Below are positions 1 through 25,553 of a stretch of 26,696 nt of DNA, piece by piece. The position numbers were made by a program, and so were the translations under genes. The first letter of the stretch is position 1. Each line of letters starts with the position of its first letter. The notes below the pieces were generated by a model. It searched no databases and was not told where the DNA came from. It worked only from the letters and a program-made list of their open reading frames with translations. This DNA comes from a virus, in the IMG/VR virus record IMGVR_UViG_3300024259_000137, positions 1 through 26,696 of that record; one strand, 5' to 3'.

Positions 1-1
1 G

Positions 2-359: not shown

Positions 360-576
360 CTTAACTACATTCAAAAAGAGTGTCAGTGAGATGGAGTCAA
401 CAGAAGAACTCCACGCCTTGTTAAATGAGATAAGAAGTAATCGTAGAACCCATAAGAGTAGGAAGAAGAAGACTACGACTACGCAGAGTGGTGTCAAACT
501 ATCTGCGAAGGAACAAGCAGCCACGATGGATAAGGCTGCAATCACTGCTATGTTAGCACAGATGAAGGGGGAATGA
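352..576 (+). CDS. Small basic protein of unknown function (74 aa)
   Basis: It starts at ATG 352 behind GGAGGTAG (341-348). The middle of the protein is strongly basic and threonine-rich (RRTHKSRKKKTTTT, about residues 31-44). This is flanked by an acidic N-terminal helix (SEMESTEELHALLNEI) and an alanine/methionine-rich C-terminal helix ending in MLAQMKGE. The basic patch could bind nucleic acid, but no named domain is visible. It ends at 576, overlapping the start of the ParB-methyltransferase gene at 573 (an ATGATGA junction), so the two are probably co-translated and may act together. Function is inferred only weakly. Confidence 0.6.
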   Translation: MTDLTTFKKSVSEMESTEELHALLNEIRSNRRTHKSRKKKTTTTQSGVKLSAKEQAATMDKAAITAMLAQMKGE

Positions 577-5739: not shown

Positions 5740-5924
5740 TGATACAAGTAATAAAGATTGATAGCACAAAGCCAATAAGCCAGTTATGCCGTGACTTATT
5801 GGCTGAACTTGAATTCATTGCACCACGTGGTGAGTGGATTAAAGAATTCATTAAAGCATACGGCGTTAAACCTTCCTATTCAATTAAATATGAAGGTGGA
5901 AAGGATGAAGATGGACAACATTAA
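5739..5924 (+). CDS. Small protein of unknown function (61 aa)
   Basis: It starts at ATG 5739, sharing a TAATG junction with the ATPase gene; GGAGAGGAAA just upstream serves as ribosome binding site. The sequence has a beta-strand-like start (MIQVIKIDS), an amphipathic helix (ISQLCRDLLAELEFI) and a lysine/glutamate-rich C-terminus. No motif is recognised. It is followed by an overlapping zinc-ribbon gene. Given its place after the polymerase and ATPase, a replication accessory role is possible but unproven. Confidence 0.6.
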   Translation: MIQVIKIDSTKPISQLCRDLLAELEFIAPRGEWIKEFIKAYGVKPSYSIKYEGGKDEDGQH

Positions 5925-9999: not shown

Positions 10000-10007
10000 T
10001 GTATATC

Positions 10008-12032: not shown

Positions 12033-12055
12033 ACCTTCCTATTAAATTTAATATG
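12033..12055 (-). promoter_or_regulatory. AT-rich palindrome, copy A, upstream of the 672-aa gene
   Basis: The core TATTAAATTTAATA (12040-12053) is a perfect 14-base palindrome. On the plus strand it is preceded by ACCTTCC, whose complement AGGAAGG is the Shine-Dalgarno sequence of the gene starting at 12026 (7-base spacer). In this copy the opposite outer arm has diverged, so the Shine-Dalgarno is not paired. It fills nearly the whole 33-base gap between two genes. The same element occurs at three other intergenic places. The role is unknown: promoter, operator or RNA-processing site. Confidence 0.7.
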
Positions 12056-12059
12056 TAGA

Positions 12060-13595
12060 TTAACCACCACTTGCTCCACCAATACCACCTGCAACTGCAC
12101 CAACTGCTCCACCGATTGCAGTACCAACACCTGGTATTACCGATCCAATGGTTGCGCCAAGGCTTGCACCTGCAGCAGCACCACCCATTACACTTTGCCC
12201 TTTACTAGGACCCTTACTCACGACTGCGGCACCACTACTGGATGCGAGTAAATTACCTGCGTGACTATATACCTGCATCGGATAATCGGAACGAAGTACT
12301 TCCCGTTCAAGAATGGTATCATTATACTCTTTATTAATTACGTAGATCATACGTTGTGCTTCAATACGTCCACCATAGGCGGCTTGCTTCTGACTAAACT
12401 CTGCACCTTTCAATTGTGTAAGCACCTGTGTCATACCAAAGATATATTGATTACGAGCAGCCTGTATTGCACTATACGATGACATGTACCCTGCTTCATG
12501 CTGTTTCGCAAAATCTTGCGCAGTCGTGATAATGTCCCTCTGCGTCTCAGCAATCTGCTTAACTTGATTCATGATCATATTCATGATGCTTTCAACAGTT
12601 GCAGTGAATCGCACCTTAAATACGTCGATGTGTTGTGCAAGTGAGTCACGATACGCACCTATCAACGTGGCATTATCTCCCGTTGCAATGCTCGGATACG
12701 TTGCGATTACACTGTCAAGTATCTTTCCTTTAACACCTGCTTCATATTCACTAACCTCCCTACCACGATCACTCTCAAGCAATGCGATACCTATTGCGAA
12801 GGAACTGGTCATGTTAGCATTCATATTACTCATCTGCCCCGCGAACCTACCTACCGAACGTTGATGCCTGTTAATGGTACGAGTTTCAAATGCATCTACA
12901 TCACTATTAATCTGCCCACTCGCATCATTCACGATGACAAGTGCCTTTGCGATTGCACTATCAATAACTGTGTCAGCATTATTCTTCACAGTCTCCAGTA
13001 CATCACCAATTAGTGTCTGCATCTTACTAACGTTCTCATTCCATATCACAGTTGGAAAGTTATCACTATTAGTAGTAGCACTATTCACGAGTCCCTTCAT
13101 AGGTGCAATTAACGCTGCCCTTATTGTATTGAAGGAGTCCTGTATCATAGGTTGTACAGTGTCATGAGTATCAGTCATAACAAGTCCTGCCTTTGTAATC
13201 GCTTCATCGATAAGTGTATTAAATGTATCCTTAAGGGACTCACCGTCAGCACCAGGTTCACCGAAACCAATGCTAATGTCAGCCATAGCCTTCGTGATAG
13301 ATGCTTCAAATATATCTTCTGCATTATATGCAAGTGCATCAGTTACATTCTTATTCGCATCAGACAGCATTGCAGGCGTAAGGATTGATACACCTGAAGG
13401 ACCATATAGGTCAGCACTAGGATTACCTGTATAAGGATTATTACCAAGTGCTGTTATCAATTGCCTACTCATGCTAACACTATCAAATAAGTCATCTATC
13501 TCAGTAGCATTACCAATATTTCCCTTCAGCCACGCTTCTTGCGTATGACTTATATACTCAGGATAACTAGACGAACTAGCGCCACCACCACCCAT
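12060..13595 (-). CDS. Helical virion protein with glycine-zipper C-terminus, probable ejection protein (T7 gp14 position)
   Basis: This 511-aa protein starts with a Gly/Ser leader (MGGGGASSSS) and then is almost entirely helical, with many alternating charged and hydrophobic residues. Its last 50 residues form a Gly/Ala-rich hydrophobic tract (GGAAAGASLGATIGSVIPGV, then more GG repeats), typical of membrane-inserting glycine zippers. This fits a protein that leaves the virion and helps make a conduit through the cell envelope, as T7 gp14 does, although it is much longer than gp14 (about 196 aa). The start has GGAGG upstream, and the gap to the preceding gene is 1 base. No sequence family is recognised; the role is inferred. 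Confidence 0.65.
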   Translation of the reverse strand: MGGGGASSSSYPEYISHTQEAWLKGNIGNATEIDDLFDSVSMSRQLITALGNNPYTGNPSADLYGPSGVSILTPAMLSDANKNVTDALAYNAEDIFEASITKAMADISIGFGEPGADGESLKDTFNTLIDEAITKAGLVMTDTHDTVQPMIQDSFNTIRAALIAPMKGLVNSATTNSDNFPTVIWNENVSKMQTLIGDVLETVKNNADTVIDSAIAKALVIVNDASGQINSDVDAFETRTINRHQRSVGRFAGQMSNMNANMTSSFAIGIALLESDRGREVSEYEAGVKGKILDSVIATYPSIATGDNATLIGAYRDSLAQHIDVFKVRFTATVESIMNMIMNQVKQIAETQRDIITTAQDFAKQHEAGYMSSYSAIQAARNQYIFGMTQVLTQLKGAEFSQKQAAYGGRIEAQRMIYVINKEYNDTILEREVLRSDYPMQVYSHAGNLLASSSGAAVVSKGPSKGQSVMGGAAAGASLGATIGSVIPGVGTAIGGAVGAVAGGIGGASGG

Positions 13596-13596
13596 A

Positions 13597-14031
13597 TTAT
13601 ACCTCCAGCGTTAATAACACATGCTCAGCAGTTCCGCCGAGTTGTGTAACTCTATGGATAATCGCACCTTCATTCGTATAGGCGACAATCCGATGACATT
13701 TATGCTTCTTTGCAAAATCACGGAGAACGGTATATGTATCAACCCATGTCTTATCCTTAATAGGTAGTTGCTTAAGTGATACAAGTGCGAGTATTAATAA
13801 GTTCCTAACTTCAATAGCCATTTCACCAGTGAAGTGAGTTATCATAACCGCTACCATTTCCTTATTCTCTACCATCGCCCACGCTTGCATCTTATCCTGC
13901 ATTAATGCGTTATAGGTATATTCAATTTGTTCTTCACTACCGAACACTGTTGGTGCTAGTGAGTCGGCGATAACATTCTTCATAGGCTCCCAGTTTTCCT
14001 GTATAGCCTCTAACGTAAGTTTAATTAGCAT
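13597..14031 (-). CDS. GNAT-like small protein (T7 gp13-like position)
   Basis: This 144-aa protein has the general layout of an acetyltransferase (GNAT) fold: an N-terminal helix (TLEAIQENWEPMKNVIADSL), a strand pair (AWAMVENKEMVAVMITHFTG), a region where the acetyl-CoA loop would sit (VRNLLILALVSLKQLP), a helix (WVDTYTVLRDFAKKHKC), the strand IVAYTN and the end motif VTQLGGTAEHVLLTLEV. The classical Q/RxxGxG/A acetyl-CoA loop is not evident, so enzymatic activity is doubtful. T7 gp13, encoded between the nozzle and gp14, is a similar small GNAT-like virion protein, and this gene sits in the same place. It overlaps the previous gene by 11 bases; the ribosome binding site is GAGGAC. Confidence 0.55.
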   Translation of the reverse strand: MLIKLTLEAIQENWEPMKNVIADSLAPTVFGSEEQIEYTYNALMQDKMQAWAMVENKEMVAVMITHFTGEMAIEVRNLLILALVSLKQLPIKDKTWVDTYTVLRDFAKKHKCHRIVAYTNEGAIIHRVTQLGGTAEHVLLTLEV

Positions 14032-15229
14032 CTAGTCCTCTAATGCCCCTCTTATCAATTCGTTTATAGGACACGGTTATAGGTCCATTTGGCATGATGT
14101 CTGCAAATGCTTCACAATTCACAACCACTCGAAATTCAATACCTGCCAATCCCATATAAGCCATGTTCTCTTGATTTAAATCTTTAAACGCACTGCGTGT
14201 CCAAGCAGTCTTACTCTTATAACGATAGTCAATTGCAACAGTCGTGATGTTAGATGCATCCATGTCCCAATCTACATGAATCCACTCTAATGATTTAATG
14301 CCACGATTACCGAAGTCAATGATATCAGTCACAATCGTTAGTGATGGGTCACTGCTATTGTTAAAGTTAATAGCCTCACTTGCACCCAGTGGATCAGTAA
14401 TCTCAACAAACCAACTTACATCTTCACCTTCATCACCAGCGTCACCGCCTGCCTTCTCAATCGTTTCATCAAAGGCGACACCATCCCACGCGTTCACTGA
14501 TAGTGGATTATCCGCACCACCTTTAAATACGACAAGGTGATCACCATGCTTAAAATCAGCTTCCGTAATAGTGAATGGTTCATCCTCTTCTTGCACAAGT
14601 CCATTCATTGCATTTTCACTGATCTGTACATTATCAACTGTCACGATAACATTAGGTCCTGTTATACGAGAAGAACCTGACAACGCTTCATTAAATAGGA
14701 ATGTTTCTTCAGTTACAATCTCATCTTGTATCTGCCTAGTTTCAGCAATTATCTGTTGATCATTAAGGACATATCCATAATCTTTAATCTGTGCGAGTTG
14801 CTTATTAACAGCAGTTTTAACACGGTCAGGCTCGAATGCAACTGCTGTCGTTCCACCAGTATCTGCAATTGCGAAGAAGAGCCAATACTCATTCTCTACT
14901 CCATAACCTACACTTGTCATAGCAGGTATAATATCAGGCATTGCCACAGTGAAAGCACGAATTGCATCATTCATATCAATAGTTTCACCACTTAATATAT
15001 CAATGTCATCACCGAGGTCTTCAAATATCAATAAGTACATACCAGTATCAGTACCTGCATCCCTATCAGTGTAAGTACTTAATTTATTATCCCAAGTACC
15101 CATCCACGTTATTATTCCATCAGCTTCTGTCCACTCGTATACCTGCGCTTTCCAAAACGTAGCACTCGCACCAGTATAACCGATGCCAGTGGCTGCGTTT
15201 AAATTAGCTACTACTTTACCTATAGGCAT
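14021..15229 (-). CDS. Putative structural (tail) protein of unknown family (402 aa)
   Basis: The protein is acidic and beta-rich with few long helices except near residues 135-165, and has no cysteine-rich or catalytic motif. It carries many short strand-like segments (FWKAQVYEW, GMYLLIFEDLG, VIVTVDNVQISE, VAIDYRYKSK), as common in tail or fibre-associated proteins. It starts behind AGGAAGG, which is an arm of palindrome copy B. Lying between the propeller-like tail protein and the GNAT-like gene, it most likely belongs to the tail, but nothing in the sequence names its role. Confidence 0.6.
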   Translation of the reverse strand: MPIGKVVANLNAATGIGYTGASATFWKAQVYEWTEADGIITWMGTWDNKLSTYTDRDAGTDTGMYLLIFEDLGDDIDILSGETIDMNDAIRAFTVAMPDIIPAMTSVGYGVENEYWLFFAIADTGGTTAVAFEPDRVKTAVNKQLAQIKDYGYVLNDQQIIAETRQIQDEIVTEETFLFNEALSGSSRITGPNVIVTVDNVQISENAMNGLVQEEDEPFTITEADFKHGDHLVVFKGGADNPLSVNAWDGVAFDETIEKAGGDAGDEGEDVSWFVEITDPLGASEAINFNNSSDPSLTIVTDIIDFGNRGIKSLEWIHVDWDMDASNITTVAIDYRYKSKTAWTRSAFKDLNQENMAYMGLAGIEFRVVVNCEAFADIMPNGPITVSYKRIDKRGIRGLDAN

Positions 15230-15238
15230 ATCATTTGC

Positions 15239-15266
15239 ACCTTCCTATTAAATTATATATGAAGGT
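15239..15266 (-). promoter_or_regulatory. AT-rich palindrome, copy B, upstream of the 402-aa gene
   Basis: Both outer arms are retained here (ACCTTCC on the left, GAAGGT on the right) around a partly decayed core (TATTAAATTATATAT). On the minus-strand transcript the AGGAAGG arm is the Shine-Dalgarno sequence for the start at 15229 (10-base spacer), and it can pair with CCUUC of the other arm. It occupies the gap between the 160-aa and 402-aa genes, directly after the stop codon at 15267. Confidence 0.65.
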
Positions 15267-15749
15267 TTAACTCATTGTCACTTTCCAATAGAAGTGAAAA
15301 CGTCTCGCGGCAGGGACAACTTCATTAATCGTGTATGTTGCGAATGTACTTGTGAACACACTTGCACTCGCACCACCTATTAACTTATAACCCAATTGAA
15401 GTGTACCGTTAAGTGTAACAGCACCATCAACGTAGCCATAAAATTCAACATACGTCTCAGTTCCATCACCTCCATCATTCAACGATGTAACGAACCAGTG
15501 TGAATGAATTGCAGCGCCAGCGGCGATATATGCGATACCATCTTTATCAGCCGCATAAGCATCACTTGCGATGAAGTTATTGATAGCTTCATCTACATTA
15601 ACAGCCATACTTTCTGCAAGGTATGCCTTAAGGTCACTACCAATGGTATTATGTTCTTCTTTCTCAGTCCCAGGCACCATCGCCCCAGTCTCAAGATCGG
15701 TCTGCCATGACTTGACAACACCAGCTACTTTAATCTTTAACTCACTCAT
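15267..15749 (-). CDS. Putative structural protein of unknown family (160 aa)
   Basis: It is a beta-rich, slightly acidic protein with no recognisable motif. It ends in an aromatic strand (RRFHFYWKVTMS) and has a glycine-rich centre (DGGDGTETYVEFYGYVDGAV), a composition common in small virion or fibre-associated proteins. The start ATG overlaps the previous stop as ATGA at 15746-15749, with GGAGT upstream, so it is likely co-translated with the propeller-like tail gene. It is immediately followed by palindrome copy B. Role unknown; tail or fibre attachment is the best guess from position. Confidence 0.55.
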   Translation of the reverse strand: MSELKIKVAGVVKSWQTDLETGAMVPGTEKEEHNTIGSDLKAYLAESMAVNVDEAINNFIASDAYAADKDGIAYIAAGAAIHSHWFVTSLNDGGDGTETYVEFYGYVDGAVTLNGTLQLGYKLIGGASASVFTSTFATYTINEVVPAARRFHFYWKVTMS

Positions 15750-16972
15750 AGCGTTACTCCATAAACTTGACCGTTATGATACACAGTCGACATTATTACT
15801 TGACTAACTTCACTCATACCATGCGGGGAGAGTAAGAACGTCCTCGCACCATTGGTTATGTAGAAGTCGCCAAGCACTTTATTATAAGATACAATTACAT
15901 CATCATCATCAATCTCGCTAACGTACTCATGGTAATCCAGTCGCTCAGGACCTTCTTCAGTCACTCGCCATATGTAACCTTCTTTATCCACCAACACGTG
16001 TTGATCCTTATCTCCATTCACCGCACCAGTATTCATGATACCAGGTATGTCCAACTTGGTAACGCTGAACGTCGGGATAGGCTCCACAATACCTTTCATG
16101 ATAGCCGCTCCATCTTCCCCATACACTATCACACTATCACCGAGGCGTTTCATATGCTTCACAGCACCTTTAAAGGGCATCACTGCGAAGCCTGCATCCC
16201 CACGCCTCACTACATCGAACATGATTGGATCACTTGCACTATAATCAGCGCCATTGACAATGCTACTAATCATCAACTCAGGATAGAATAACCAGAACAT
16301 ATCCATTGCACCTACAGTCGTCCACATCACCATATTTGCATCAAGTTTAAATTCATATTCAAGATCATAATTATTCTTATTCGCCAATGTTGACCAGAAG
16401 GCTCGCCACGGTGCTGTTAAGGTAGTACTATCGAATCCACCTAACATCATGCGACCTTGGAACTCAAGACCTGCATTTATATTCTGAGTATTATTCCCAT
16501 ATACGTGATCGTAGTTACCAGCATTTCGCGTCATACCAGTTTGTGGATTCATCTTAAATATAGTAGCAGTCCCATTCACCATCATCCATGCACTTCCGAA
16601 GTCAATGAACTGCCAACTGTGACCAGCAGTTATTGTCGTTACTACGTTTGGCACATTAGATCTATATATATCAATCTCAGTCAATGTACCTGCAGTGAAG
16701 TCAATTGTGAATAGACGATTTTTATCAACAAGGTATATTACCTCTTGACCTTTGATAAACTGTGGATTAGGACTATTGACGCTGACACCGTATGTGGTAT
16801 ATAGTGTACTCCCACTCATAATCGTCGCCAGTGGCTCAAATGTCTCAAGCCCACGCTCCCCAACTCTTGTATTCAAATGGCTAATAGTCTGCACACTATT
16901 CCTCGGCATGTACTTACGAGGACGAAGACCTTTATCCACACCATCCAGTTTTATTGCAAATTCTTTAGCCAC
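15746..16972 (-). CDS. Propeller-like tail tube/nozzle candidate (T7 gp12 or P22 gp10 position)
   Basis: This 408-aa protein consists of repeated strand clusters that read like beta-propeller blades: QEVIYLVDKNRLFTIDF, WQFIDFGSAWMMVNGTATIF, GRMMLGGFDS, DSVIVYGEDGAAIM, QHVLVDKEGYIWRVTEEG and GDFYITNGARTFLLS. Tail nozzle (T7 gp12) and hub (P22 gp10) proteins have this architecture, and it directly follows the adaptor gene as gp12 follows gp11. It is shorter than T7 gp12 (about 794 aa). The start is GTG at 16972 (AGAGG upstream), just after the stop of the adaptor gene. Family assignment rests on pattern and position, not on a signature motif. Confidence 0.6.
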   Translation of the reverse strand: MAKEFAIKLDGVDKGLRPRKYMPRNSVQTISHLNTRVGERGLETFEPLATIMSGSTLYTTYGVSVNSPNPQFIKGQEVIYLVDKNRLFTIDFTAGTLTEIDIYRSNVPNVVTTITAGHSWQFIDFGSAWMMVNGTATIFKMNPQTGMTRNAGNYDHVYGNNTQNINAGLEFQGRMMLGGFDSTTLTAPWRAFWSTLANKNNYDLEYEFKLDANMVMWTTVGAMDMFWLFYPELMISSIVNGADYSASDPIMFDVVRRGDAGFAVMPFKGAVKHMKRLGDSVIVYGEDGAAIMKGIVEPIPTFSVTKLDIPGIMNTGAVNGDKDQHVLVDKEGYIWRVTEEGPERLDYHEYVSEIDDDDVIVSYNKVLGDFYITNGARTFLLSPHGMSEVSQVIMSTVYHNGQVYGVTL

Positions 16973-16973
16973 A

Positions 16974-18041
16974 TTAACCTCTCATTTGATTGATCTGACT
17001 ACCGCCTTCACTCATGGCCATATCAAGGTCAATACCCTTCAATAATTCACCAAGTGAATTCATCCAATCCTTCGCACCTTCAGTATTACGATAACTAGTC
17101 TCAATGAACCAGTTCGTTGCATATACTAATGCAAATGGCTCTACCCTTGTCCACCAACTCTCCACTATCGTAGTACCACTCTGACTACCACCCAATGTAC
17201 CACTTCCGTCAATACTCGCTAACGTCACATCAGTGGTGAACGTGATGCTATTACCTGCTGTACCTGCAGTATCCCATGTGATACGTAGGAGTGTACCACG
17301 AGCACTACTTGCAGTTGCTGTAACAGCATGTGCATTGATAATAGCAATCGCGTTAGTTAAACATTCTGCAATCGTGCTACCGATTGTAATCTCAGTAATA
17401 CCGCCACTCGCAGCCTTCCACGTAAATGTAGTACTATCAATAACCATCACTTCATCTACAACTGGAAGTCCTGTGAATGTAATAGCACCTACCGATGCAA
17501 CTTCAAGACCAAGTTCAGGTGAGTAGAATTCTCCAAATACATCTATCGTATATAACTCATCAACTGGTGGTGCTACTATCAGTGTATCGTAACCTTCATT
17601 CGCTTGGAATGATACTCCTTTATAGTCATCACGTCCGTCGAAGGAATCATCCGTCTCTTGCTGTTGACTAGGCGCTAGTCGATGTACACCAGTTGCGTAA
17701 TAAGCAGGTGTACCAGTATCTTCACTATCCCAGTCCTTCTCATATTCAGTACGAAGAGTATCAATATCTTCCCTTGTTAATTCAACACGCTTCCCATTAG
17801 TCCCCGTAGCCCATACCGATTCGACACTACGCATCTTATCCATAGTGACTTTATATTCCCCACTTAACAAATCAGCATAAAATCTTTTCCTGCTTCCAGG
17901 AGTCGGTTGAAGGCGGTCAAGAAATCTTTGACCCGCATTTATATAACTATTAACACCTGCGTCAGTGCTCCCATCAAGTGCACCGAGATCAGTACGACCA
18001 GTGTTAGATATAACCAATGCTCTTATAACCGTTAGTGACAT
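16974..18041 (-). CDS. Head-tail adaptor (T7 gp11-like) with an inserted Ig-like domain
   Basis: The N-terminal part (SYINAGQRFLDRLQPTPGS, then a WATG strand region) and the C-terminal helices (VEPFALVYATNWFIETSYRN) match the layout of podovirus adaptor/gatekeeper proteins, which bind the portal and start the tail. About residues 182-290 form a separate beta-rich insert (VMVIDSTTFTWKA, then CLTNAIAIINAHAVTATAS and LLRITWDTAGTAGNSITFTT), a type of small domain seen in many phage tail proteins. The framework resumes at ESWWTRVEPF. The ribosome binding site GAAGG is in an arm of palindrome copy C, 7 bases from ATG 18041. The gene follows the capsid gene after a hairpin. Confidence 0.65.
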   Translation of the reverse strand: MSLTVIRALVISNTGRTDLGALDGSTDAGVNSYINAGQRFLDRLQPTPGSRKRFYADLLSGEYKVTMDKMRSVESVWATGTNGKRVELTREDIDTLRTEYEKDWDSEDTGTPAYYATGVHRLAPSQQQETDDSFDGRDDYKGVSFQANEGYDTLIVAPPVDELYTIDVFGEFYSPELGLEVASVGAITFTGLPVVDEVMVIDSTTFTWKAASGGITEITIGSTIAECLTNAIAIINAHAVTATASSARGTLLRITWDTAGTAGNSITFTTDVTLASIDGSGTLGGSQSGTTIVESWWTRVEPFALVYATNWFIETSYRNTEGAKDWMNSLGELLKGIDLDMAMSEGGSQINQMRG

Positions 18042-18047
18042 ATGTTC

Positions 18048-18074
18048 ACCTTCATATTAAATTTAATAGGAAGG
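18048..18074 (-). promoter_or_regulatory. AT-rich palindrome, copy C, upstream of the adaptor gene
   Basis: A perfect core TATTAAATTTAATA (18055-18068) is flanked by CCTTC and GAAGG arms. On the minus strand GAAGG (18049-18053) is the Shine-Dalgarno sequence of the adaptor gene, and it can pair with CCUUC of the opposite arm. The outer edge overlaps the GC-rich hairpin that follows the capsid gene, giving a compact terminator/palindrome/ribosome-binding-site unit between head and tail genes. Confidence 0.7.
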
Positions 18075-18097
18075 GGCGACACACAAAGCATCGCCCC
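18073..18097 (-). terminator. GC-rich hairpin after the major capsid gene
   Basis: GGGGCGA (18073-18079) and TCGCCCC (18091-18097) form a perfect 7-bp stem with an 11-base loop, 16 bases downstream of the capsid stop codon. On the minus transcript the stem is followed by UUCCUAUUAAAUUU, which is U-rich but not a clean U-run, so it may be a partial terminator or an mRNA-stabilising/processing hairpin. Either would let the capsid message accumulate above the tail genes. Confidence 0.65.
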
Positions 18098-18112
18098 AAA
18101 CCTAGTTATCAG

Positions 18113-19402
18113 TTAAACAGTACTATCAAGTCCCACACCATTCATAAGCATGTGAGCATTGAAGTAATGAACTTCCAAGCCAGTCTCAGTAAGGTAAGAT
18201 TCCTTCTTACCATCGATCTTAGCCTGACCACCCTTGCGATCACTATCATCTTCATTGAAGAAAGTATTATCAAGAGGTTTTTCCTTGATGTACTTCATAT
18301 CAACAATTAGATTCGTGTTACGAGTCGTGGTTTCGTAGTTGAACAATGGATGTGACTTCAGGTATAATGTACCGAAAGGTGTCACCCATTCACCTACCTG
18401 AATACCATACGATTTGGTCTTACTGGTAATCGGATAGTATCCAACTGCCTTCACTAATCGTTGCAATCCAAGCAAGGCACCAGAACCACAGATACCCATC
18501 TTTTCATTGCTACCATGGCGGAAGACTTGTTCAAGATAAGTGTCGAGGAAGTGCTCTCCACCCTGCATCCAAGTTTGTCCACTATAGTTAGTGTCAGTCT
18601 GAAAGTTAACAACATTGCTACTGGCGTTAGCCTTGATGTGCTGAACGATACCACGTGTGAAGCGTTTAGGCTTCCCATTGACACCAGTCTTCAACTTATA
18701 CACACCCCAGATGAAAGCCTTCTCCATCTCAATACTATGAAGCTCTAAGCACTCTCTCTTAGATTCATCGTATGCAGGACCTGTACGCAGTTTACTCTTC
18801 TGAGCAGTACGTGTCAGTTCTAACGGTGTTTCGAAGATCTGAGTATAGTTATCATACTCAGTCACATCATACGCAATGGTATCTGGCATTGGGCTACCTT
18901 CAGCCTGTGCACTACCAATTACCATAGCACGGTCACAATCACTAAGATCATGACTACTACTGTTATCATCATCTTCTAACAAGGCAACCTTGATATAGGA
19001 TGAAGCGCCATTTTGATTACTGCTAATAACATCAGCAGCTACATCAACATCAAGATCAGATGCATCACGCAGTAGGACAGTATGCCCTTTACGAATCTCA
19101 TCACTCAACGCTTCAGCCATCTTAATAAATAAGATGTCACCTGATACACCACCAGATGAGTATGCACTAGACAAGCCAATATCTGTATATACACCAGTTA
19201 CTGCGCCAGCCTGTTGTGGCAGTGCCTTTGTAAACCAATGAAACTTGGCACTATCAGGGGCTTCACTATTCATCATCCCGAGCATTGCTGTCAACGGTGC
19301 CTGACCATTAGGATACTCATGGAGTATACCTTCTCGCCAGGTTTCAGGAAGCTGATTTGTTACCCAGTCTCCCGTTCCTCTCAAACCTAAAAATGCACTC
19401 AT
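18113..19402 (-). CDS. Major capsid protein, SU10/DUF5309-like
   Basis: This 429-aa protein lies after scaffold and decoration genes and has the length and feel of an HK97-fold capsid protein of the SU10 (DUF5309) type. It shows the N-terminal SAFLGLRG/PNGQAPLTAMLGMM region, the YTQIFETPLELTRTAQKSKL segment, a helix (LELHSIEMEKAFIWGVYKL) followed by GVNGKPKRFTRGIVQHI, and a late GEWVTPFGTLYLKSHPLFNY. This helix-then-GKPRR-like pattern is typical of that family. It has a strong ribosome binding site (AAAGGAGG), which overlaps the last codons of the preceding decoration gene. A GC-rich hairpin lies just downstream. Family named from pattern memory; capsid role is well supported by context. Confidence 0.82.
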   Translation of the reverse strand: MSAFLGLRGTGDWVTNQLPETWREGILHEYPNGQAPLTAMLGMMNSEAPDSAKFHWFTKALPQQAGAVTGVYTDIGLSSAYSSGGVSGDILFIKMAEALSDEIRKGHTVLLRDASDLDVDVAADVISSNQNGASSYIKVALLEDDDNSSSHDLSDCDRAMVIGSAQAEGSPMPDTIAYDVTEYDNYTQIFETPLELTRTAQKSKLRTGPAYDESKRECLELHSIEMEKAFIWGVYKLKTGVNGKPKRFTRGIVQHIKANASSNVVNFQTDTNYSGQTWMQGGEHFLDTYLEQVFRHGSNEKMGICGSGALLGLQRLVKAVGYYPITSKTKSYGIQVGEWVTPFGTLYLKSHPLFNYETTTRNTNLIVDMKYIKEKPLDNTFFNEDDSDRKGGQAKIDGKKESYLTETGLEVHYFNAHMLMNGVGLDSTV

Positions 19403-19404
19403 TC

Positions 19405-19839
19405 TTAAGCCTCCTTTGTTAATACGCCAGCATAACCTGTAACGAGATAATGTGTACCATTGCTATACAGATCAGCATAATTACCAATCACAGCAGCAAT
19501 GTTTAGATACTTTGTCGCAACTCCACTACCACCAAGGTAGATACCCACCGCAGTTGGCGGGGTAATCTGCATGATCTGCGCGGCTGTTGCTTGAAAGCGT
19601 ATTGACTTACCCTTGTAAGGGCCAGGTGCTGGGAGGGTATGAACAGTGGTACCACTGGCACCTGTGTTCGTATTATTCTTCCCAAAGTCAGCAGCTACAA
19701 TTGTATCAGTAGCCGCATGCGCTTCCACATCTGCATTTGCAGGCACTTGTGGATACGCAGTTACACCTTTCCAAAAGAACTCAACTGCCCCATTTGACAG
19801 TTCAATTCCTGCTTGTCGAAGTTTACCAAACATAGTCAT
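19405..19839 (-). CDS. Capsid decoration/cement protein candidate, paralogue 1
   Basis: The 144-aa protein is beta-rich with Gly/Ala/Thr loops. From residue 29 on (YPQVPAN) it is closely similar to the neighbouring upstream gene, including the shared blocks ATDTIVAADFGKNNTNTGAS, GTTVHTLPA, AAQIMQI and GYAGV(L/V)TKEA. The first 28 residues are unrelated to the paralogue. Its place directly before the capsid gene, and the presence of two variants, fit a capsid-surface decoration or head-fibre protein. The ribosome binding site is GGAGGTGAACC. No signal peptide or catalytic motif is seen. Role inferred. Confidence 0.65.
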   Translation of the reverse strand: MTMFGKLRQAGIELSNGAVEFFWKGVTAYPQVPANADVEAHAATDTIVAADFGKNNTNTGASGTTVHTLPAPGPYKGKSIRFQATAAQIMQITPPTAVGIYLGGSGVATKYLNIAAVIGNYADLYSNGTHYLVTGYAGVLTKEA

Positions 19840-19851
19840 GGTTCACCTCCT

Positions 19852-20304
19852 CTAAGCTTCTTTGGTCACGACACCAGCATAACCGACAACATGGTATCCA
19901 AGGCCATCACACCATAGGTCGATGTAATTACCAATGACACCTGCAACCTGCACATACTTACTCACAACACCACTACCATTCAACCAAACTGCTTCGCCAG
20001 TCGCTGGGTCAATCTGCATAATCTGTGCAGCTAACGCAGTGAACCTAATCACCTGTCCAGGATGGGATGCAGCAGCGGGTAACGTATGTACAGTTGTACC
20101 TGACGCACCCGTGTTAGTGTTATTCTTACCAAAATCAGCCGCTACGATCGTATCAGTTGCGCCGTGAGCCTCTACAGCGCCGTTTGCAGGTACTTGCGGA
20201 TATCCAATCCCGTATATACCTCGAACACCGAGACCTAATTTCTTGTCATTCTCCAGTAACTCCTGCGTGGTACGCGGAAGAAGAATGGCATCATAATCAC
20301 TCAT
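19852..20304 (-). CDS. Capsid decoration/cement protein candidate, paralogue 2
   Basis: The 150-aa protein shares its C-terminal 116 residues with paralogue 1 but has its own 34-residue N-terminal part (MSDYDAILLPRTTQELLEND and onward). That part could form a short helix anchoring it to a different site. Within the shared part the DNA differs mostly at third codon positions, so the two copies are old and kept under protein-level selection. It lies between scaffold and paralogue 1. A decoration or head-completion role is inferred from position and composition. Confidence 0.65.
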   Translation of the reverse strand: MSDYDAILLPRTTQELLENDKKLGLGVRGIYGIGYPQVPANGAVEAHGATDTIVAADFGKNNTNTGASGTTVHTLPAAASHPGQVIRFTALAAQIMQIDPATGEAVWLNGSGVVSKYVQVAGVIGNYIDLWCDGLGYHVVGYAGVVTKEA

Positions 20305-20318
20305 AATGTTGCTCCAAT

Positions 20319-21152
20319 TTACTTACTTGTCAAACCCAGTGTGTTTTGGACGTCCTTCGCTAGAGCTGTCCTATCATCAGAACCTCGTTTACCTGGCCCT
20401 TTTGGCTTAGTCGGAAAGGCAGGTTTCTTTTTACTCTTCTTCTTTGGAGGAGTATCGGGGTCCTTCCGAGGAACACCCTTCTTAATTCCTAATGTCTTGC
20501 GAGCGCGAGATTCCGCTTCACTCAACAATTCATCAAGGGATAGTTTTGAATCTTCTTTCTGTACCTCATCAACCAGTACACCAACATATTTTCTAAACGG
20601 GAGAAGGTCATTATTCTCCTTGAAAAATTCATCTGCACGTGCTATCGTTGCCGCCCTTGTCTGCACTTGATCAGTGACATTCGTTCGAAGGTTCTGCTCA
20701 ACACTTGTTCTAGTCACATTCACGACCTTCGTCAGCAGTGCATTCATCTTTGCACTATCCTGTGTCGCTTCATCAAGTTCCTCTTGTGTCACAAACTCAA
20801 GAGCAGTGTCCTTAACAGGAGGCGGTGTTACAGGAGGTGTTGCAACTGGTGGAGTCGCAGCGGCGGGCGCTGCCTTACCAATATCAGCAAGTGCCTTACG
20901 AAGACGTTCTATCGTCTCATCCCGTTCATCTTCATCCTCTTCCTCAGTCTCTTCTTCCTCCGTCTCTTCCTCTTCTTCCTCCTCAGTTTCTTCTTCAGAC
21001 TCTTCTTCCTCAGTTTCCTCTTCTTCGGTCTCCTCAGTCTCTTCGGTTTCTTCCTCTTCAGTTTCTGCAGGCTCTTCAGTCTTAGTAAGTCCAAGAGTCT
21101 TCATTACATCACTTGCTTGTTCTTCTTGCTCAGTCTTCTCTTCAGTCGTCAT
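20319..21152 (-). CDS. Capsid scaffolding protein
   Basis: The start at ATG 21152 (277 aa) is chosen because AGAGGAAG precedes it and it gives an 11-base overlap with the previous gene. In-frame ATGs at 21170, 21182 and 21200 lack such a signal. The protein has an extreme Glu/Thr-rich tract (about residues 26-79), a short helix, a Pro/Ala linker (95-113), a helical middle (115-225) and a Lys/Pro-rich C-terminus (PPKKKSKKKPAFPTKPKGP). Highly charged, helical proteins with a basic capsid-binding tail between portal and capsid genes are typical scaffolds. No protease motif is visible, so a separate protease is either absent or not in this window. Confidence 0.8.
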   Translation of the reverse strand: MTTEEKTEQEEQASDVMKTLGLTKTEEPAETEEEETEETEETEEEETEEEESEEETEEEEEEETEEEETEEEDEDERDETIERLRKALADIGKAAPAAATPPVATPPVTPPPVKDTALEFVTQEELDEATQDSAKMNALLTKVVNVTRTSVEQNLRTNVTDQVQTRAATIARADEFFKENNDLLPFRKYVGVLVDEVQKEDSKLSLDELLSEAESRARKTLGIKKGVPRKDPDTPPKKKSKKKPAFPTKPKGPGKRGSDDRTALAKDVQNTLGLTSK

Positions 21153-21414
21153 CGTTACTTCCTCTCTCATTTTCTTGTTCATCACTGAGAGCTTCCTCAT
21201 AAAGCACCTCAGGTAATAATAGTATATCCTCTAATGCCTTCGCTTCACCTTGGAAACGGTACATTAGTTTAATATCATCTTCCGCTAACAAATCCTTCGT
21301 CGTCACATCAAGGCTCATCTTAATCTGTTCCTCAATAGCAAGCCATACGATGTTCTCACGGAAACTCTTCATCTGCGCGGCTGTCGGTATATCGCGCTCC
21401 TCATCAATAGGCAT
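21142..21414 (-). CDS. Small acidic protein between portal and scaffold (90 aa)
   Basis: This 90-aa protein is helical and acidic, with an N-terminal MPIDEERDIPTAAQMKSF and a C-terminus ending in EQENERGSNDDD. No known family is recognised. It begins 11 bases after the portal stop and overlaps the scaffold start, so it is tightly bound into the head operon. Possible roles are scaffold assistance or head assembly. Its internal helix (IVWLAIEEQIKMSLDVTTKD) is amphipathic rather than membrane-like. Confidence 0.6.
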   Translation of the reverse strand: MPIDEERDIPTAAQMKSFRENIVWLAIEEQIKMSLDVTTKDLLAEDDIKLMYRFQGEAKALEDILLLPEVLYEEALSDEQENERGSNDDD

Positions 21415-21425
21415 TCTTATATCCC

Positions 21426-23363
21426 TTATCTTTGCGGAAGTGGTACAAGGTTACCCTTATCCACTTCCTTCATTACAGTTTCATCATCTTGCGTTTGCAC
21501 TTGCGGTGCTTGATTAGGCTTCAGTTCAAAGTCCTCTACATTTTTAGCACCCATCTGCCGTGCAATGTGCTTAAATATCCTTACCATGTCGAAGTTCTTA
21601 CCAACCTCAGGATTCTGTGCTAACACTTGATACATCTGTGTCCATACATCTGCATCCTCACCACCTGGCATACTCCCATCACTCACTTCCACGCTGAAGT
21701 TAACGTTAATATCACGTGGGTCTACGTTTACAAATTCTTCACCAAATGTACGTACCAGATCATTCTTATGCCTACCAACGATCTGAAGGTACGTACTCTC
21801 ACTCATCAACTGTTGCGTTTGACTTGCGCATAGGTAGCCGATATCCTGCATACTCTGTGCACTAATCATCTTCGCACTCTTCTCAAGCCTACTAAGTGCA
21901 CCAGTCCTTGCACCCTTAACCTCAGTTGCACTCCGTCTCTCTCCCTTATCCTTCATAACACCAGATATGGCATCAAGTGCACCACTGGCATTATTCATCA
22001 TCTGCATAAAGTACATCGCATCCTGCACGTTGTTCCGAGTGATGTCACTAATGTTCAATTGCTTAGCAACATTATCAACACCCTTACCCCACGCTCTGCG
22101 TCTCGTCCTAATCAACTTCCCAGCACCAGGATCACGAAGATCATTCATGTTAACACTCATTGGATCAACGATGATCATATCATTAACAGCCTTACGGACA
22201 TTCTGCATATGACTATTGATAACGAAGTCGGTTGCCTTCTGCATCCCATTGATAATCTCCATACGACTAATAGGACTTCCGCTGTAACCATCAAAGTCAG
22301 GACTACACGATGTAATGGGATACTTATTATGATGCAACCCTACAGGCATTGCCTTCGTCACAAGTTGATCGGATGATACACCGAAGAGCCACTTTTGTGG
22401 AAACTTACTCTTCCCAATCTTCCAGTCTTTCGGAATAATGTTAATGTACATATACACTGTGTCAATACTCTTCTGTCTTGTAGGATCAGGCATCTGTTGC
22501 TTAGTCCTACCACTATCATGAGTTATAGAGAATTGACTCCTTGCATCCTGTACTTCATTCAAGTACTCAACGTTGAATAAGTCACCACCCTGACGACTAT
22601 CCCTCTCCAGCATACCAACATAGTTATCACGATCAATCCAGCCGAAGAATTCTCCATCTTGTATATCCTGTATCGCTACATTAGGGTCAGGAAATACACT
22701 ATACGGACTCATATTTAATAGTCGGTTACCTTCAAATACTAGGAACTCTTCTTCCTTCTCCACATCACCAGTTTTCTTAAATGCACTCGTTATGGATGAG
22801 AAGAAGCCCTCAGGCTCCGTTGCACGACGTACCGCAGTCTCTTCATACCACACAGGTGCTGCGATGCCGAAGCCGTATGCAAAGGAATCTCGCCACTGTG
22901 TATGCAGGTTAACGGACGCTTTACTATAATGCATCTGCTGCTGTACGATCAACTCAAGGAGACGAGCACCCACAGTGGCTTCAGGATTCCTAGGATGGTA
23001 TCTGAATATAGGTGGAACAAGGAATGTGCTAACCATATAAGTCATCACAGTCTCCATGTTCATATACGTAGTCGGTATTACAATAGTATGAGTCTTATCA
23101 CCCTTATCATCCTCATCTTGCAACACGGCAGGATCAACGTACGCCGTTAGCGCCTTATCAATCTCCCTCCAGTTACCATACCTTCTACTAATGTGCTCAT
23201 GACTATCCTGTGCACGAATCATTACTTCTTTAACGATGTGATTGTGGAGATCACTTCCAGGTTTTATATCCAGATTATCGGGATACTTGTAACCATACTT
23301 CTTATTATTAAATGAAGTACTGGTCAGTGGACCTCGGAATGCTCCTTGTGCTATATTAGCCAT
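21426..23363 (-). CDS. Portal protein (head-tail connector)
   Basis: This 645-aa protein directly follows the large terminase. It has the composition of podovirus portals: an N-terminal helical part (VKEVMIRAQDSHEHISRRYG), a region of strands with many aromatic residues (SFAYGFGIAAPVWYEE), the long wing/stem middle (ITSCSPDFDGYSGSPISRME, MQKATDFVINSHMQNVRKAV), and a helical crown near SALSRLEK-like GALSRLEKSAKMISAQSMQD. It ends in a polar tail (QAPQVQTQDDETVMKEVDKG). The length is within the range of podovirus portals (about 530-730 aa). The ribosome binding site is AAAGG. Portal identity rests on position, length and pattern, not a catalytic motif. Confidence 0.8.
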   Translation of the reverse strand: MANIAQGAFRGPLTSTSFNNKKYGYKYPDNLDIKPGSDLHNHIVKEVMIRAQDSHEHISRRYGNWREIDKALTAYVDPAVLQDEDDKGDKTHTIVIPTTYMNMETVMTYMVSTFLVPPIFRYHPRNPEATVGARLLELIVQQQMHYSKASVNLHTQWRDSFAYGFGIAAPVWYEETAVRRATEPEGFFSSITSAFKKTGDVEKEEEFLVFEGNRLLNMSPYSVFPDPNVAIQDIQDGEFFGWIDRDNYVGMLERDSRQGGDLFNVEYLNEVQDARSQFSITHDSGRTKQQMPDPTRQKSIDTVYMYINIIPKDWKIGKSKFPQKWLFGVSSDQLVTKAMPVGLHHNKYPITSCSPDFDGYSGSPISRMEIINGMQKATDFVINSHMQNVRKAVNDMIIVDPMSVNMNDLRDPGAGKLIRTRRRAWGKGVDNVAKQLNISDITRNNVQDAMYFMQMMNNASGALDAISGVMKDKGERRSATEVKGARTGALSRLEKSAKMISAQSMQDIGYLCASQTQQLMSESTYLQIVGRHKNDLVRTFGEEFVNVDPRDINVNFSVEVSDGSMPGGEDADVWTQMYQVLAQNPEVGKNFDMVRIFKHIARQMGAKNVEDFELKPNQAPQVQTQDDETVMKEVDKGNLVPLPQR

Positions 23364-23372
23364 AACATACCT

Positions 23373-24911
23373 TTATATAATACGATTATATTCAACAACT
23401 GGATCATACTCCTCTTCCAGTTCTGCATACTCTAATTCAGGATCATCATTCTTCTCATCCCAATCAGCTGGACCAAACTCAAGTTCCCCATCCTCCATCA
23501 ATACGATGAAGTAGGCAAGTGCATCAATAACGTCAACCCTCTTCCCTCGTGGGAAGGATAATAATTGTGACTCAACAGGTGTACATCTACTTACATTATG
23601 ATGCATCTGATGTTGACGATAGTACTTTACCATTGCCCTTATTCGTTCTTCCTTCTTACCCTTCGCTCTCAATTCAATCAGTGGTCCGTAGAAGCCCCTC
23701 TCCCTCATCCTATCCTTCAACGGCTTAGTGATGAATAGATCTAACGATGTGACTTCAACGCCAATTGCATCTGCTTTCAATCGAAAGGCCATGTCAATTG
23801 CTACATCATAGATTTCGTCAGGATGTAACTTAAGGCCAAGAGCATCACGCACATAAATGCCATTACCAAGAGTATCAAATCCAACTCCTACTATTCCAGT
23901 CTCCGCACTTTCCATCTTAACAGTCTTAGCTGGATCAATGATAATAGCAGTCGGCATATCCTTAATACGGTGAAAGGGATCATTAATATCACTTTCATTA
24001 TATGGCATGAAGTCAGATGCTTTAAACCCCGCCGCTTCCTTAGCCCCAGGCAGGTTCCTATTCTCACGGTAGAATACATCAACCATGTTATCCCTGACGG
24101 CTTCATCATACTCCGCCTTCACATCAGCATCGCTCATGTATGAAGGCCAATTGCTAACGAGGTCATCATCACATAACTCGAGCATCTCACTTTCCCAGTC
24201 AGGACTCTCTAACAAATTGTTAAGGAGACTATCCTCATGCAACACAGTTCCGATAACGAAGATACGCCAATCCTTCTTATACCTTGCAACAGCCCTACGT
24301 ACGTCAGCATTGAACCACGTTTTCTTCTTAAGCCGCTGATCTTCACTATCCATATGCTCAGGGTCTTCAAGGTCATCCACAATGATGAAGTCAGGACGTA
24401 CGCCGTAATAGTTCATACCACGAACCTGCTGTCCTGCACCCCTTGGCATTATTCCAGTTCCTGGGAAACGTGGATCATCACGGAAGTTATCCGCTGTCCA
24501 CTGTTCCTTACTAAACATATTACTCTGCATATTACCGAATAACTTCTTAATACGCTCATTAGTCATCAATTCCCACTTCAACGACTCAGACTGCTGAACA
24601 GCCATAGTGTTCGTTGCACTTATCGGGACGATGTACTTGGCGCTACGAAATAGTATCTCAGTGGCAGGTATCGCGACGTTCACTACCGTTGTCTTACCGA
24701 TGCCACGAGGCGCCGCAATAGCACCTCGCTGAACACCGCTATTAATCATGTCAAAAATCTTACCATGTATCTTCTCAGCAAATGGTAATTCAAAACGCTC
24801 AGGGAATAATACCTTACAGGCCAGTGCTCTGTCATTGACACACTCCGCCATGATGTCCTTAACCTCTGCCTTACTGGCATTAGTTATATCTGGTATTTCA
24901 TGAGCGTACAC
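23373..24911 (-). CDS. terL: Terminase large subunit (packaging ATPase/nuclease)
   Basis: The protein (512 aa) powers DNA packaging and cuts the concatemer at the portal. The ATPase domain shows Walker A APRGIGKTT (67-75) and Walker B FIIVDD with E182 (175-182). The nuclease domain has the acidic triad expected for the RNase H-like fold: D326 in IIIDPAKT, E386 in GVEVTS and D460/D463 in VDVIDAL. The start is GTG 24911, 4 bases after the preceding stop; the ribosome binding site is weak. A very acidic C-terminal tail (residues 480-505) could contact the portal. It is followed by the portal gene. Family signature is strong; the packaging type cannot be read from the sequence. Confidence 0.93.
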   Translation of the reverse strand: MYAHEIPDITNASKAEVKDIMAECVNDRALACKVLFPERFELPFAEKIHGKIFDMINSGVQRGAIAAPRGIGKTTVVNVAIPATEILFRSAKYIVPISATNTMAVQQSESLKWELMTNERIKKLFGNMQSNMFSKEQWTADNFRDDPRFPGTGIMPRGAGQQVRGMNYYGVRPDFIIVDDLEDPEHMDSEDQRLKKKTWFNADVRRAVARYKKDWRIFVIGTVLHEDSLLNNLLESPDWESEMLELCDDDLVSNWPSYMSDADVKAEYDEAVRDNMVDVFYRENRNLPGAKEAAGFKASDFMPYNESDINDPFHRIKDMPTAIIIDPAKTVKMESAETGIVGVGFDTLGNGIYVRDALGLKLHPDEIYDVAIDMAFRLKADAIGVEVTSLDLFITKPLKDRMRERGFYGPLIELRAKGKKEERIRAMVKYYRQHQMHHNVSRCTPVESQLLSFPRGKRVDVIDALAYFIVLMEDGELEFGPADWDEKNDDPELEYAELEEEYDPVVEYNRII

Positions 24912-24915
24912 GTGC

Positions 24916-25254
24916 TTACTTCTCTACTAACGATTCGCCACGACTGTTAAGGCCTGCTGTAAAGGCCATAGGTATCTGTGCTATCACTCTAAAGATACCA
25001 GCAATGAATTTAATGACGAATGGTTCTAACCAATTCTCCCAAACGTAACCAAGACCCTTCACCTTAAGGATTGCATCATTGACGCCTTGACCGAATGCAT
25101 ATACTGCAACATATACAGCACGTTCATATTCTTTCCATTCAATCTCCTTCATCAACCAACCAAGGAAAGGGAATATCACTGTTGACCCTATCCATGCTAA
25201 TGCAGTTTCCGTGATACCAGTCTGCGCCGATAACCAAATTAATAGATCACTCAT
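24916..25254 (-). CDS. Small membrane protein, possible lysis (holin-like) protein
   Basis: The 112-aa form starts at ATG 25254. A GTG at 25263 would add three residues, and both starts are plausible because GGGAG sits either 3 or 13 bases upstream. There is a hydrophobic segment at about residues 18-35 (ALAWIGSTVIFPFLGWL) and a second hydrophobic, amphipathic one at 77-100 (EPFVIKFIAGIFRVIAQIPM), with a charged middle. Small two-segment membrane proteins next to TerL are often holins or spanin parts, as in T7-like phages. No endolysin is in the window. The lysis role is inferred. Confidence 0.55.
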   Translation of the reverse strand: MSDLLIWLSAQTGITETALAWIGSTVIFPFLGWLMKEIEWKEYERAVYVAVYAFGQGVNDAILKVKGLGYVWENWLEPFVIKFIAGIFRVIAQIPMAFTAGLNSRGESLVEK

Positions 25255-25255
25255 A

Positions 25256-25507
25256 CTAATCACTTACTCCCTTATTATGTTTGAACCCGTGTTCTTCCAA
25301 TAGTTCACTCTTCTTAAACATATAAGATTTCATGAAACCATTCTTAGATTCCTTGTCAAGTGCATAAACCATACTCACAATACGTATAGTATTATACTTT
25401 ATTTCCCTTCTAATGGCCTGCATGCCTACAGCACCACCAACAACTGCACCGCCTATCACAACATCAAGACCATGTGTCACTGCTAACTGTACTAGATCAA
25501 TTGTCAC
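25256..25507 (-). CDS. Small single-pass membrane protein, possible lysis protein
   Basis: The 83-aa protein has one glycine-rich hydrophobic segment at about residues 12-31 (HGLDVVIGGAVVGGAVGMQA). A charged C-terminal domain follows (IRREIKYN then KESKNGFMKSYMFKKSELLE). The start is GTG 25507 with GAGGTGAA upstream. It lies directly downstream of palindrome copy D and next to another membrane gene, so a lysis pair is possible. No lipobox is seen. Function is inferred only from position and membrane segment. Confidence 0.55.
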   Translation of the reverse strand: MTIDLVQLAVTHGLDVVIGGAVVGGAVGMQAIRREIKYNTIRIVSMVYALDKESKNGFMKSYMFKKSELLEEHGFKHNKGVSD

Positions 25508-25529
25508 AACTTCACCTCAATTTGAATCT

Positions 25530-25553
25530 ACCTATTAAATTTAATAGGAAGGT
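25530..25553 (-). promoter_or_regulatory. AT-rich palindrome, copy D, upstream of the lysis/packaging genes
   Basis: CCTATTAAATTTAATAGG (25531-25548) is a perfect 18-base palindrome, flanked on the right by AAGGT as in the other copies. It fills most of the 46-base gap between the HeH gene and the 83-aa membrane gene. Here the downstream Shine-Dalgarno (GAGGTGAA) is separate from the palindrome, so the palindrome itself cannot be only a ribosome-binding-site shield. This supports a transcriptional or RNA-processing role. Confidence 0.7.

What the first reader, a model, noticed from the sequence alone, without database searches (positions are those of the whole stretch)
12033..25553. Four copies of one ~28-bp AT-rich palindrome in the late block
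The shared half-site is ACCTTCCTATTAAA followed by its own inverse complement, and the copies at 12033, 15239, 18048 and 25530 are decayed versions of it. All four lie in intergenic gaps directly before minus-strand genes, and none is inside a gene. The core TATTAAATTTAATA is perfect in three copies. Such a family of near-identical palindromes in one operon looks like a phage-specific control element: late promoter, operator of a dimeric regulator, or RNA-processing site. It does not match the T7 or T4 late promoters that I know.
Basis: partly seen in the sequence, partly recalled or inferred. Interest (0 to 1): 0.68.

Follow-up and report, generated by a model that had tools for sequence, protein, structure and literature searches.

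The report
Phage-specific loading sites for ParB-methyltransferase
The repeated palindromes are very probably the DNA landing sites of a phage protein that joins a ParB-type DNA clamp to a DNA methyltransferase; each related phage has its own version of the site, spread evenly along its genome and changing in step with the protein's DNA-reading part.

Summary
The window holds five copies, not four, of ACCTTCCTATTAAATTTAATAGGAAGGT; the fifth, at 5870-5897, is in the plus-strand early block. Chance expectation is zero.

They are probably not late promoters or RNA elements. In 32 phage contigs related by capsid protein, each phage has its own 24-28-bp palindrome family (3-22 copies, 377 sites): same architecture, different sequence. 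Sites sit in gaps just before start codons and are spaced more evenly than random gaps in 28 of 28 genomes.

The cognate reader is very probably a ParB_N-HTH-N6/N4 methyltransferase fusion (window 573-1973). It is present in all 27 near-complete contigs that carry a family; the one close relative lacking it (G023) lacks palindromes. Across 49 non-redundant fusions the inner half-site covaries with the HTH recognition helix and the outer box with the loop before it. The strongest residue-base pairs fall at positions equivalent to known ParB/Noc specificity or contact residues.

Phage ParB-methyltransferase fusions were known; I found no reported DNA site. I infer parS/NBS/OB-like clamp-loading sites without ParA. 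Whether they spread methylation, regulate genes or organise DNA is open.

The parts
5870..5897 (.).
   Evidence: in relatives a site just after the primase stop is found in 12 of 30 genomes
12033..12060 (.). Palindrome copy 2, between the stop of 12060-13595(-) and the start of 10008-12026(-)
15239..15266 (.). Palindrome copy 3, flush with the stop of 15267-15749(-) and before the start of 14021-15229(-)
18048..18075 (.). Palindrome copy 4, between the capsid gene and the start of 16974-18041(-); the position that is conserved across relatives
   Evidence: a site just after the capsid stop in 27 of 32 contigs
25526..25553 (.). Palindrome copy 5, flush with the stop of 25554-25820(-) and before the start of 25256-25507(-)
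573..1973 (+). Gene of the ParB_N-HTH-N6/N4 DNA methyltransferase fusion (466 aa), the inferred reader of the palindromes
   Evidence: Pfam ParB_N 2e-7 and N6_N4_Mtase 2.1e-22; covariation; AF2 model pLDDT 83
615..908 (+). ParB_N (NTPase fold) part, residues about 15-112; AGGRR and ENLARK motifs present
969..1100 (+). Loop plus ParB-type HTH, residues 133-176; the part that covaries with the palindromes
1044..1073 (+). Recognition-helix segment GQNYSSFIQD, residues 158-167
1257..1919 (+). Methyltransferase domain, residues 229-449, DPPYGIN and PFLGSGN motifs intact; closest folds M.BceJIV and CcrM
18073..18097 (-). Terminator-like hairpin after the capsid gene, abutting palindrome copy 4
   Evidence: fold of 18066-18104(-): -22.9 kcal/mol, z -6.7

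Best explanation
The palindromes are specific binding (loading) sites for the phage's own orphan ParB-family protein, a fusion of a ParB_N NTPase fold, a ParB-type helix-turn-helix and an N6/N4 DNA methyltransferase (window 573-1973). They are the phage counterpart of parS, NBS and KorB operator sites. Supported by data here: phage-specific palindromes of shared architecture, concerted change within each genome, even spacing, and covariation of the inner half-site with the recognition helix and of the outer box with the loop before the HTH. Inferred from the ParB/Noc/KorB family: a dimer binds the palindrome, an NTP (CTP or another) closes it into a clamp, and the clamp slides away along DNA. 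That the evenly spaced sites let such clamps cover the whole phage genome, carrying the methyltransferase with them, is inference only. Possible outcomes are protective methylation, silencing or activation of nearby genes, or organisation of phage DNA.
For: Each of 32 related contigs has its own family, 377 sites in all; dinucleotide-shuffled genomes usually give at most 2-3 similar copies, with more (up to 8) only in two very AT-rich genomes. ParB-methyltransferase is in 24 of 25 capsid relatives of at least 38 kb, and all 27 near-complete carriers scanned have a family; G023, which lacks the gene, has none. Mantel test in 29 genomes: HTH vs motif r=0.527 (p<=0.0005), partial for HTH given methyltransferase 0.454, reverse 0.087 n.s.. 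Split: outer box with loop r=0.529, inner box with recognition helix r=0.305 (both p=0.0005), cross-terms n.s.. In 49 proteins under 80% identical, the five best of all inner-box residue-base associations over the whole 448-residue protein fall in the recognition helix: H145 with G7 (10/11 vs 3/38), R150 with C10 (5/5 vs 0/44), D144 with G9 (6/6 vs 3/43); the top five of 206 windows for the inner box are the helix and the top six for the outer box are the loop. By the GKS motif these positions correspond to ParB 173, 178 and 172; 173 is one of four residues that set parS/NBS specificity and 172 and 178 contact parS (PMC7383237). Sites are more even than random gaps in 28 of 28 genomes, Stouffer Z -12.8. 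Structure: Noc, ParB and CcrM-like folds.
Against: No binding, NTPase or methylation assay exists. Phylogeny confounds the Mantel tests: terminase small subunit and nuclease windows reach similar raw r for the whole motif, and in a scan over 17 proteins single-residue associations of similar p occur elsewhere. In the new, independent set the loop/outer-box link was not reproduced and the methyltransferase domain correlated about as well as the helix. Sites are never directly before the fusion gene itself (0 of 30). Two relatives have an altered methyltransferase motif IV (DPDW) and the Desulfofustis phage has DFPY, yet all three keep their palindromes, so methylation may not be the point of the sites. 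The window's own palindrome (28 bp, even) is atypical and was not in the covariation sets.
Confidence: 0.82

Rival explanations
1. Classical operators: the same ParB-family protein (or a partner) acts only as a local transcription regulator of the genes that follow each site, KorB-like but without genome-wide coverage or methyltransferase delivery.
For: Sites lie a median 15 nt before start codons; some positions are conserved, such as after the capsid gene in 27 of 32 contigs, often next to a terminator-like hairpin. KorB regulates from scattered OB sites (PMC11790492). No integrase was found and the phage RNAP search was uninformative, so control of host RNAP is needed.
Against: No fixed promoter geometry around the sites. 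Even spacing beyond random gap choice is not expected of simple operators. In compact genomes any site placed in a gap is near a start codon. This rival shares the reader protein with the best explanation.
Confidence: 0.3
2. The sites are read by a different phage DNA-binding protein, such as the terminase small subunit or the small RHH-like protein encoded just upstream of the fusion; the fusion's HTH only tracks phylogeny.
For: Terminase small subunit windows reach r=0.56 with the whole motif in 24 genomes. The RHH-like gene has a site before it in 12 of 29 genomes.
Against: After removing genome-wide background the top three windows for the inner box, of 1737 from 17 proteins, are in the fusion's recognition helix. 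RHH-like best r is 0.30 and n.s. once HTH is controlled. Residue-base pairs fall on known ParB specificity or contact positions.
Confidence: 0.08
3. Late promoters of a phage-specific RNA polymerase or sigma factor.
For: The window copy at 18048 is the only sequence of promoter size between a terminator-like hairpin and the next start codon. The right arm with GGAAGG superficially resembles a phage promoter start.
Against: Palindromic in every relative; present in early and late blocks; no conserved flanking geometry. No single-subunit RNAP found by PF00940, but that search had no positive control.
Confidence: 0.04
4. RNA hairpins that hide the ribosome-binding site or are processed.
For: In three of the window copies the right arm is SD-like and 6-9 nt from the ATG.
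Against: Mismatches in the arms, read in gene sense, favour A-C (98) over wobble G-U (64). Hairpin energies vary from -1.6 to -8.0 kcal/mol. In relatives the SD usually lies outside the palindrome.
Confidence: 0.03

Closest known systems
parS sites of ParB and NBS sites of Noc (bacterial chromosomes)
   Same: Palindromic sites scattered on the genome, read by a ParB-type HTH whose specificity changes through a few recognition-helix residues (PMC7383237); ParB_N fold conserved. Noc also uses multiple dispersed sites (established knowledge).
KorB and its OB operators (plasmid RK2)
   Same: ParB-family protein with scattered palindromic operators; CTP-dependent sliding clamp able to regulate at a distance (PMC11790492).
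   Different: Weak sequence match of the fusion to KorB (3e-6); no KorA-like partner looked for; sites are evenly spaced; methyltransferase fused.
Phage ParB-CTPase-fold / N6_N4 methyltransferase fusions (Kaljevic et al. 2025, PMC12704722)
   Same: Same Pfam domain combination, reported as frequent in phages and prophage regions, with role unknown and anti-defence suggested.
   Different: That survey reports no DNA site in the passages read. Here the members carry a ParB-type HTH and a matching palindrome family.
Stoperators of mycobacteriophage L5 and P1 operators (from memory, not tested)
   Same: Many copies of one site through a phage genome, mostly in short gaps.
   Different: Those are asymmetric and bound by temperate-phage repressors; here the sites are palindromic and no integrase was found.

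Membership tests
ParB protein family (reader protein) | ParB_N NTPase fold with Box II (G-x-RR) and Box III (EN..R) motifs | tested here: met
   PF02195 above cut-off (31.4 vs 26.3 bits) for the window protein; GGRR or GERR and EN..R in all 29 aligned relatives; Noc and ParB hits
ParB protein family (reader protein) | Central HTH that reads a palindromic DNA site | tested here: inconclusive
   HTH predicted (PF13384 just below cut-off in G016) and covaries with the palindromes; binding itself not assayed
ParB protein family (reader protein) | C-terminal dimerisation domain | not tested
   Replaced by a methyltransferase domain; a dimer was not modelled
ParABS partition system | ParA partner | tested here: not met
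   PF13614 over cut-off in 0 of 25 phage contigs, in 14 of 14 controls. The window contig itself is partial.
parS / NBS / OB type sites | Specific binding by the ParB-family protein and NTP-dependent loading and sliding | not testable with these tools
   Only covariation and co-occurrence evidence here
parS / NBS / OB type sites | Palindromic, multi-copy, dispersed | tested here: met
N6/N4 beta-type DNA methyltransferases | Motif IV (DPPY) and motif I (FxGxG) in a methyltransferase fold | tested here: met
   Window: DPPYGIN, PFLGSGN; Z about 25 to M.BceJIV and CcrM. Three relatives deviate at motif IV.
T7-like late promoters | Directional, non-palindromic promoter with a single-subunit phage RNAP | tested here: inconclusive
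   Sites are palindromic and also in the early block; PF00940 found nothing, but no control rang

The most novel reading that the evidence does not exclude
A virus-encoded, nucleotide-gated DNA sliding clamp that carries a DNA methyltransferase and is loaded at evenly spaced, lineage-specific palindromes, so that the phage marks (or silences, or packages) its own genome and not the host's.
Probability: 0.35. Interest if true: 0.92.

Novelty: new variant of a known kind. Interest (0 to 1): 0.8.

Why it matters
Orphan phage ParB-methyltransferase fusions are common, but their role and, in what I could find, their DNA targets are unknown (PMC12704722). This gives a predicted DNA site for each of dozens of them, with predicted specificity residues, so binding, NTP loading (the survey notes that non-binders may need DNA), methylation and regulation become directly testable. 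It also offers a large natural data set on how ParB-type HTH specificity evolves, extending the ParB/Noc pair, and evenly spaced loading sites would be a new feature of phage genome organisation.

Tried and rejected
Exact search of IMG/VR for the 21-base half plus core: only two contigs, each with a single site. The one searched (G001, with L005) has no ParB-methyltransferase, so I treat these as unrelated. Close-relative search with the terminase: no hit. The 'transcriptional regulator' of the Desulfofustis phage (2296-2838), which has a site before it, showed no DNA-binding domain in Pfam and was dropped. The RHH-like small protein as reader: rejected. RNA hairpin: rejected. Fixed promoter geometry: not found. 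Lone palindrome search with a strict symmetry threshold missed the relatives' families and only the repeat-based search showed them. Distant capsid relatives 119X, Tiera, Kuura, CRP-810, Mel-JY34 and Vibrio VS-ABTNL-3 showed no convincing family; the first four had no fusion hit, the last two a divergent one. In pdb_via the methyltransferase domain filled the list, so the ParB part was judged from Foldseek and sequence hits only.

Full report
What is there. The window (an IMG/VR virus record of 26,696 bases) has five copies of the palindrome ACCTTCCTATTAAATTTAATAGGAAGGT at 5870, 12033, 15239, 18048 and 25526. The gap between these and the next best match is more than 45 bits, and shuffled sequence gives none. 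Annotated neighbours are a ParB-methyltransferase, DNA polymerase and primase in the early block, and capsid, portal-like and large terminase genes in the late block.

Relatives show the same thing with other letters. Contigs found through the capsid protein do not carry this palindrome. A repeat search that does not assume the sequence showed that nearly every relative carries its own: GCTATGTCCCAANTTGGGACATAGC in the Desulfofustis phage OP947158, CTWTGGGGA-W5-TCCCCAWAG in G004, ACCGTGTACAATWATTGTACACGGT in G016, CTTCGGTCAAAATTTGACCGAAG in G003, and so on. After refinement, 32 contigs hold 377 sites, 3 to 22 each. Shuffled genomes usually give families of 2-3, and up to 8 only in two very AT-rich ones. 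The common plan is a 25-mer: outer box, often CTATG; inner box of 4-5 bases that differs between phages; AT-rich centre; and the mirror image. The window's version is atypical: 28 bp, even length.

Where the sites are. 289 of 377 lie outside gene interiors, against 12% expected. Where a start codon follows within 150 nt, the median distance is 15 nt. One position is strongly conserved, just after the capsid gene (27 of 32 contigs); others, such as before portal, after primase or before the small terminase gene, are occupied in a third to a half. In the window the post-capsid copy abuts a terminator-like hairpin, and hairpins near that site are seen in several relatives (by eye). Within each genome the sites are more evenly spaced than random choices of gaps, in 28 of 28 genomes. 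Related genomes are not independent, so the combined Z of -12.8 overstates the evidence, but the direction is uniform.

Not RNA, not a promoter core. If the arms paired in RNA, wobble G-U should outnumber A-C among imperfect pairs in gene sense; the counts are 64 and 98. Predicted hairpins of the window copies are weak and uneven. Base composition around 174 oriented sites is flat, with at most a small excess of TATAAT-like hexamers 6-10 nt upstream.

The reader protein. A ParB_N-HTH-N6/N4 methyltransferase fusion (window 573-1973) is present in 24 of 25 capsid relatives of at least 38 kb. All 27 near-complete carriers that I scanned have a palindrome family; the one close relative without the gene, G023, has none. 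A single loss is thin evidence by itself. The stronger evidence is covariation. In 29 genomes the distance between palindromes follows the distance between HTH regions (r=0.527) better than that of the methyltransferase part (0.311), and the partial correlations favour the HTH clearly (0.454 against 0.087). The outer box follows the loop before the HTH and the inner box the recognition helix, without significant cross-terms. Controls matter here: windows of the small terminase subunit and of a nuclease reach similar raw values for the whole motif, and a scan of single residues over 17 proteins finds chance or phylogenetic associations of similar p. With genome background removed, the three best of 1737 windows for the inner box are in the fusion's recognition helix, whereas for the outer box nuclease windows rank above the fusion's loop.

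A second collection of fusions (428 relatives, 80 kept) added new helix-site pairs. The rule seen in the first set, His at helix position 3 with G at site position 7, held in the new set alone (5/5 vs 2/19, p=5e-4). Over 49 proteins under 80% identical, and over every residue of the protein, the five best inner-box associations all fall in the recognition helix, and the best windows for the outer box in the loop. In the new set taken alone the window-level contrast was weaker: the helix correlated with the inner box (r=0.286, p=0.0005), but so did the methyltransferase domain (0.306), and the loop did not correlate with the outer box. By the conserved G-K-S at the helix start, position 3 is ParB residue 173, one of four residues that set parS against NBS specificity, and positions 2 and 8 are residues 172 and 178, which contact parS (PMC7383237). 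That correspondence rests on a short motif; the HMMER alignment to Noc is shifted in this region.

Structure. The AlphaFold2 model of the window protein (pLDDT 83, pTM 0.64) has a ParB_N part, a helix-turn-helix and a methyltransferase. Foldseek and profile searches match Noc and ParB for the first parts and CcrM, M.BceJIV and N4-cytosine enzymes for the last. The motif for NTP binding is intact in all 29 relatives checked; motif IV of the methyltransferase is altered in three, so DNA reading may matter even where methylation is doubtful. Two relatives (G024, G028) have a second, shorter ParB-like protein with an HTH and no methyltransferase.

Interpretation. The palindromes are best read as phage parS/NBS/OB-like sites for an orphan ParB protein. 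No ParA was found in 25 contigs and no integrase, so ordinary partition of a plasmid-like prophage is unlikely, with the limit that many contigs are not formally complete. From the family (ParB, Noc, KorB; PMC11790492) I infer NTP-gated clamp loading and sliding. The even spacing suggests that coverage of the whole genome matters, but the conserved post-capsid site and the gap positions also fit regulation. I put about equal weight on genome-wide action (methylation or organisation) and local regulation.

Novelty. Kaljevic et al. 2025 (PMC12704722) report ParB-fold/N6_N4 methyltransferase fusions as a phage-enriched class of unknown role. I found no report of DNA sites for them, within a library that lacks most subscription journals. 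Hence 'new variant of a known kind'.

Noticed in passing
window 1-199 (+): Truncated ORF whose C-terminal part (LIPHGLKSKVLEPLVKSL...) resembles the small RHH-like protein encoded just upstream of the fusion in relatives (Desulfofustis phage 9872-10105, G008 12709-12948).
   Followed up: partly
G024:36659-37408 and G028:23145-23885 (loci L145, L154): Second ParB-like proteins of about 250 aa with ParB_N and HTH but no methyltransferase, with a different recognition helix; a second site family for them was not identified.
   Followed up: no
G019, G027 and Desulfofustis phage fusion genes: Methyltransferase motif IV is DPDW, DPDW and DFPY instead of DPPY while the palindromes are kept.
   Followed up: partly
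window 5905-6159 (+): Small zinc-ribbon-like protein (CPNC...CQYC...CQDC) directly after palindrome copy 1, at the convergent end of the early block.
   Followed up: no
window 20911-21075: Low-complexity repeat coding for an acidic, Glu-rich stretch in the scaffold-like protein 20319-21200(-).
   Followed up: no
window 19405-19839 and 19852-20304 (-): Two adjacent, recognisably duplicated genes after the scaffold region (repeats D4, D18, D19, 447 nt apart).
   Followed up: no
L005 2141-2161 and L006 3933-3953: Exact 21-base match to core plus right arm (TATTAAATTTAATAGGAAGGT), single copy, just before a start codon in two phages related to each other.
   Followed up: partly
G023 (loci L138-L140): Capsid relative of 46 kb without the ParB-methyltransferase fusion and without a palindrome family: a natural negative control worth a closer look.
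   Followed up: partly
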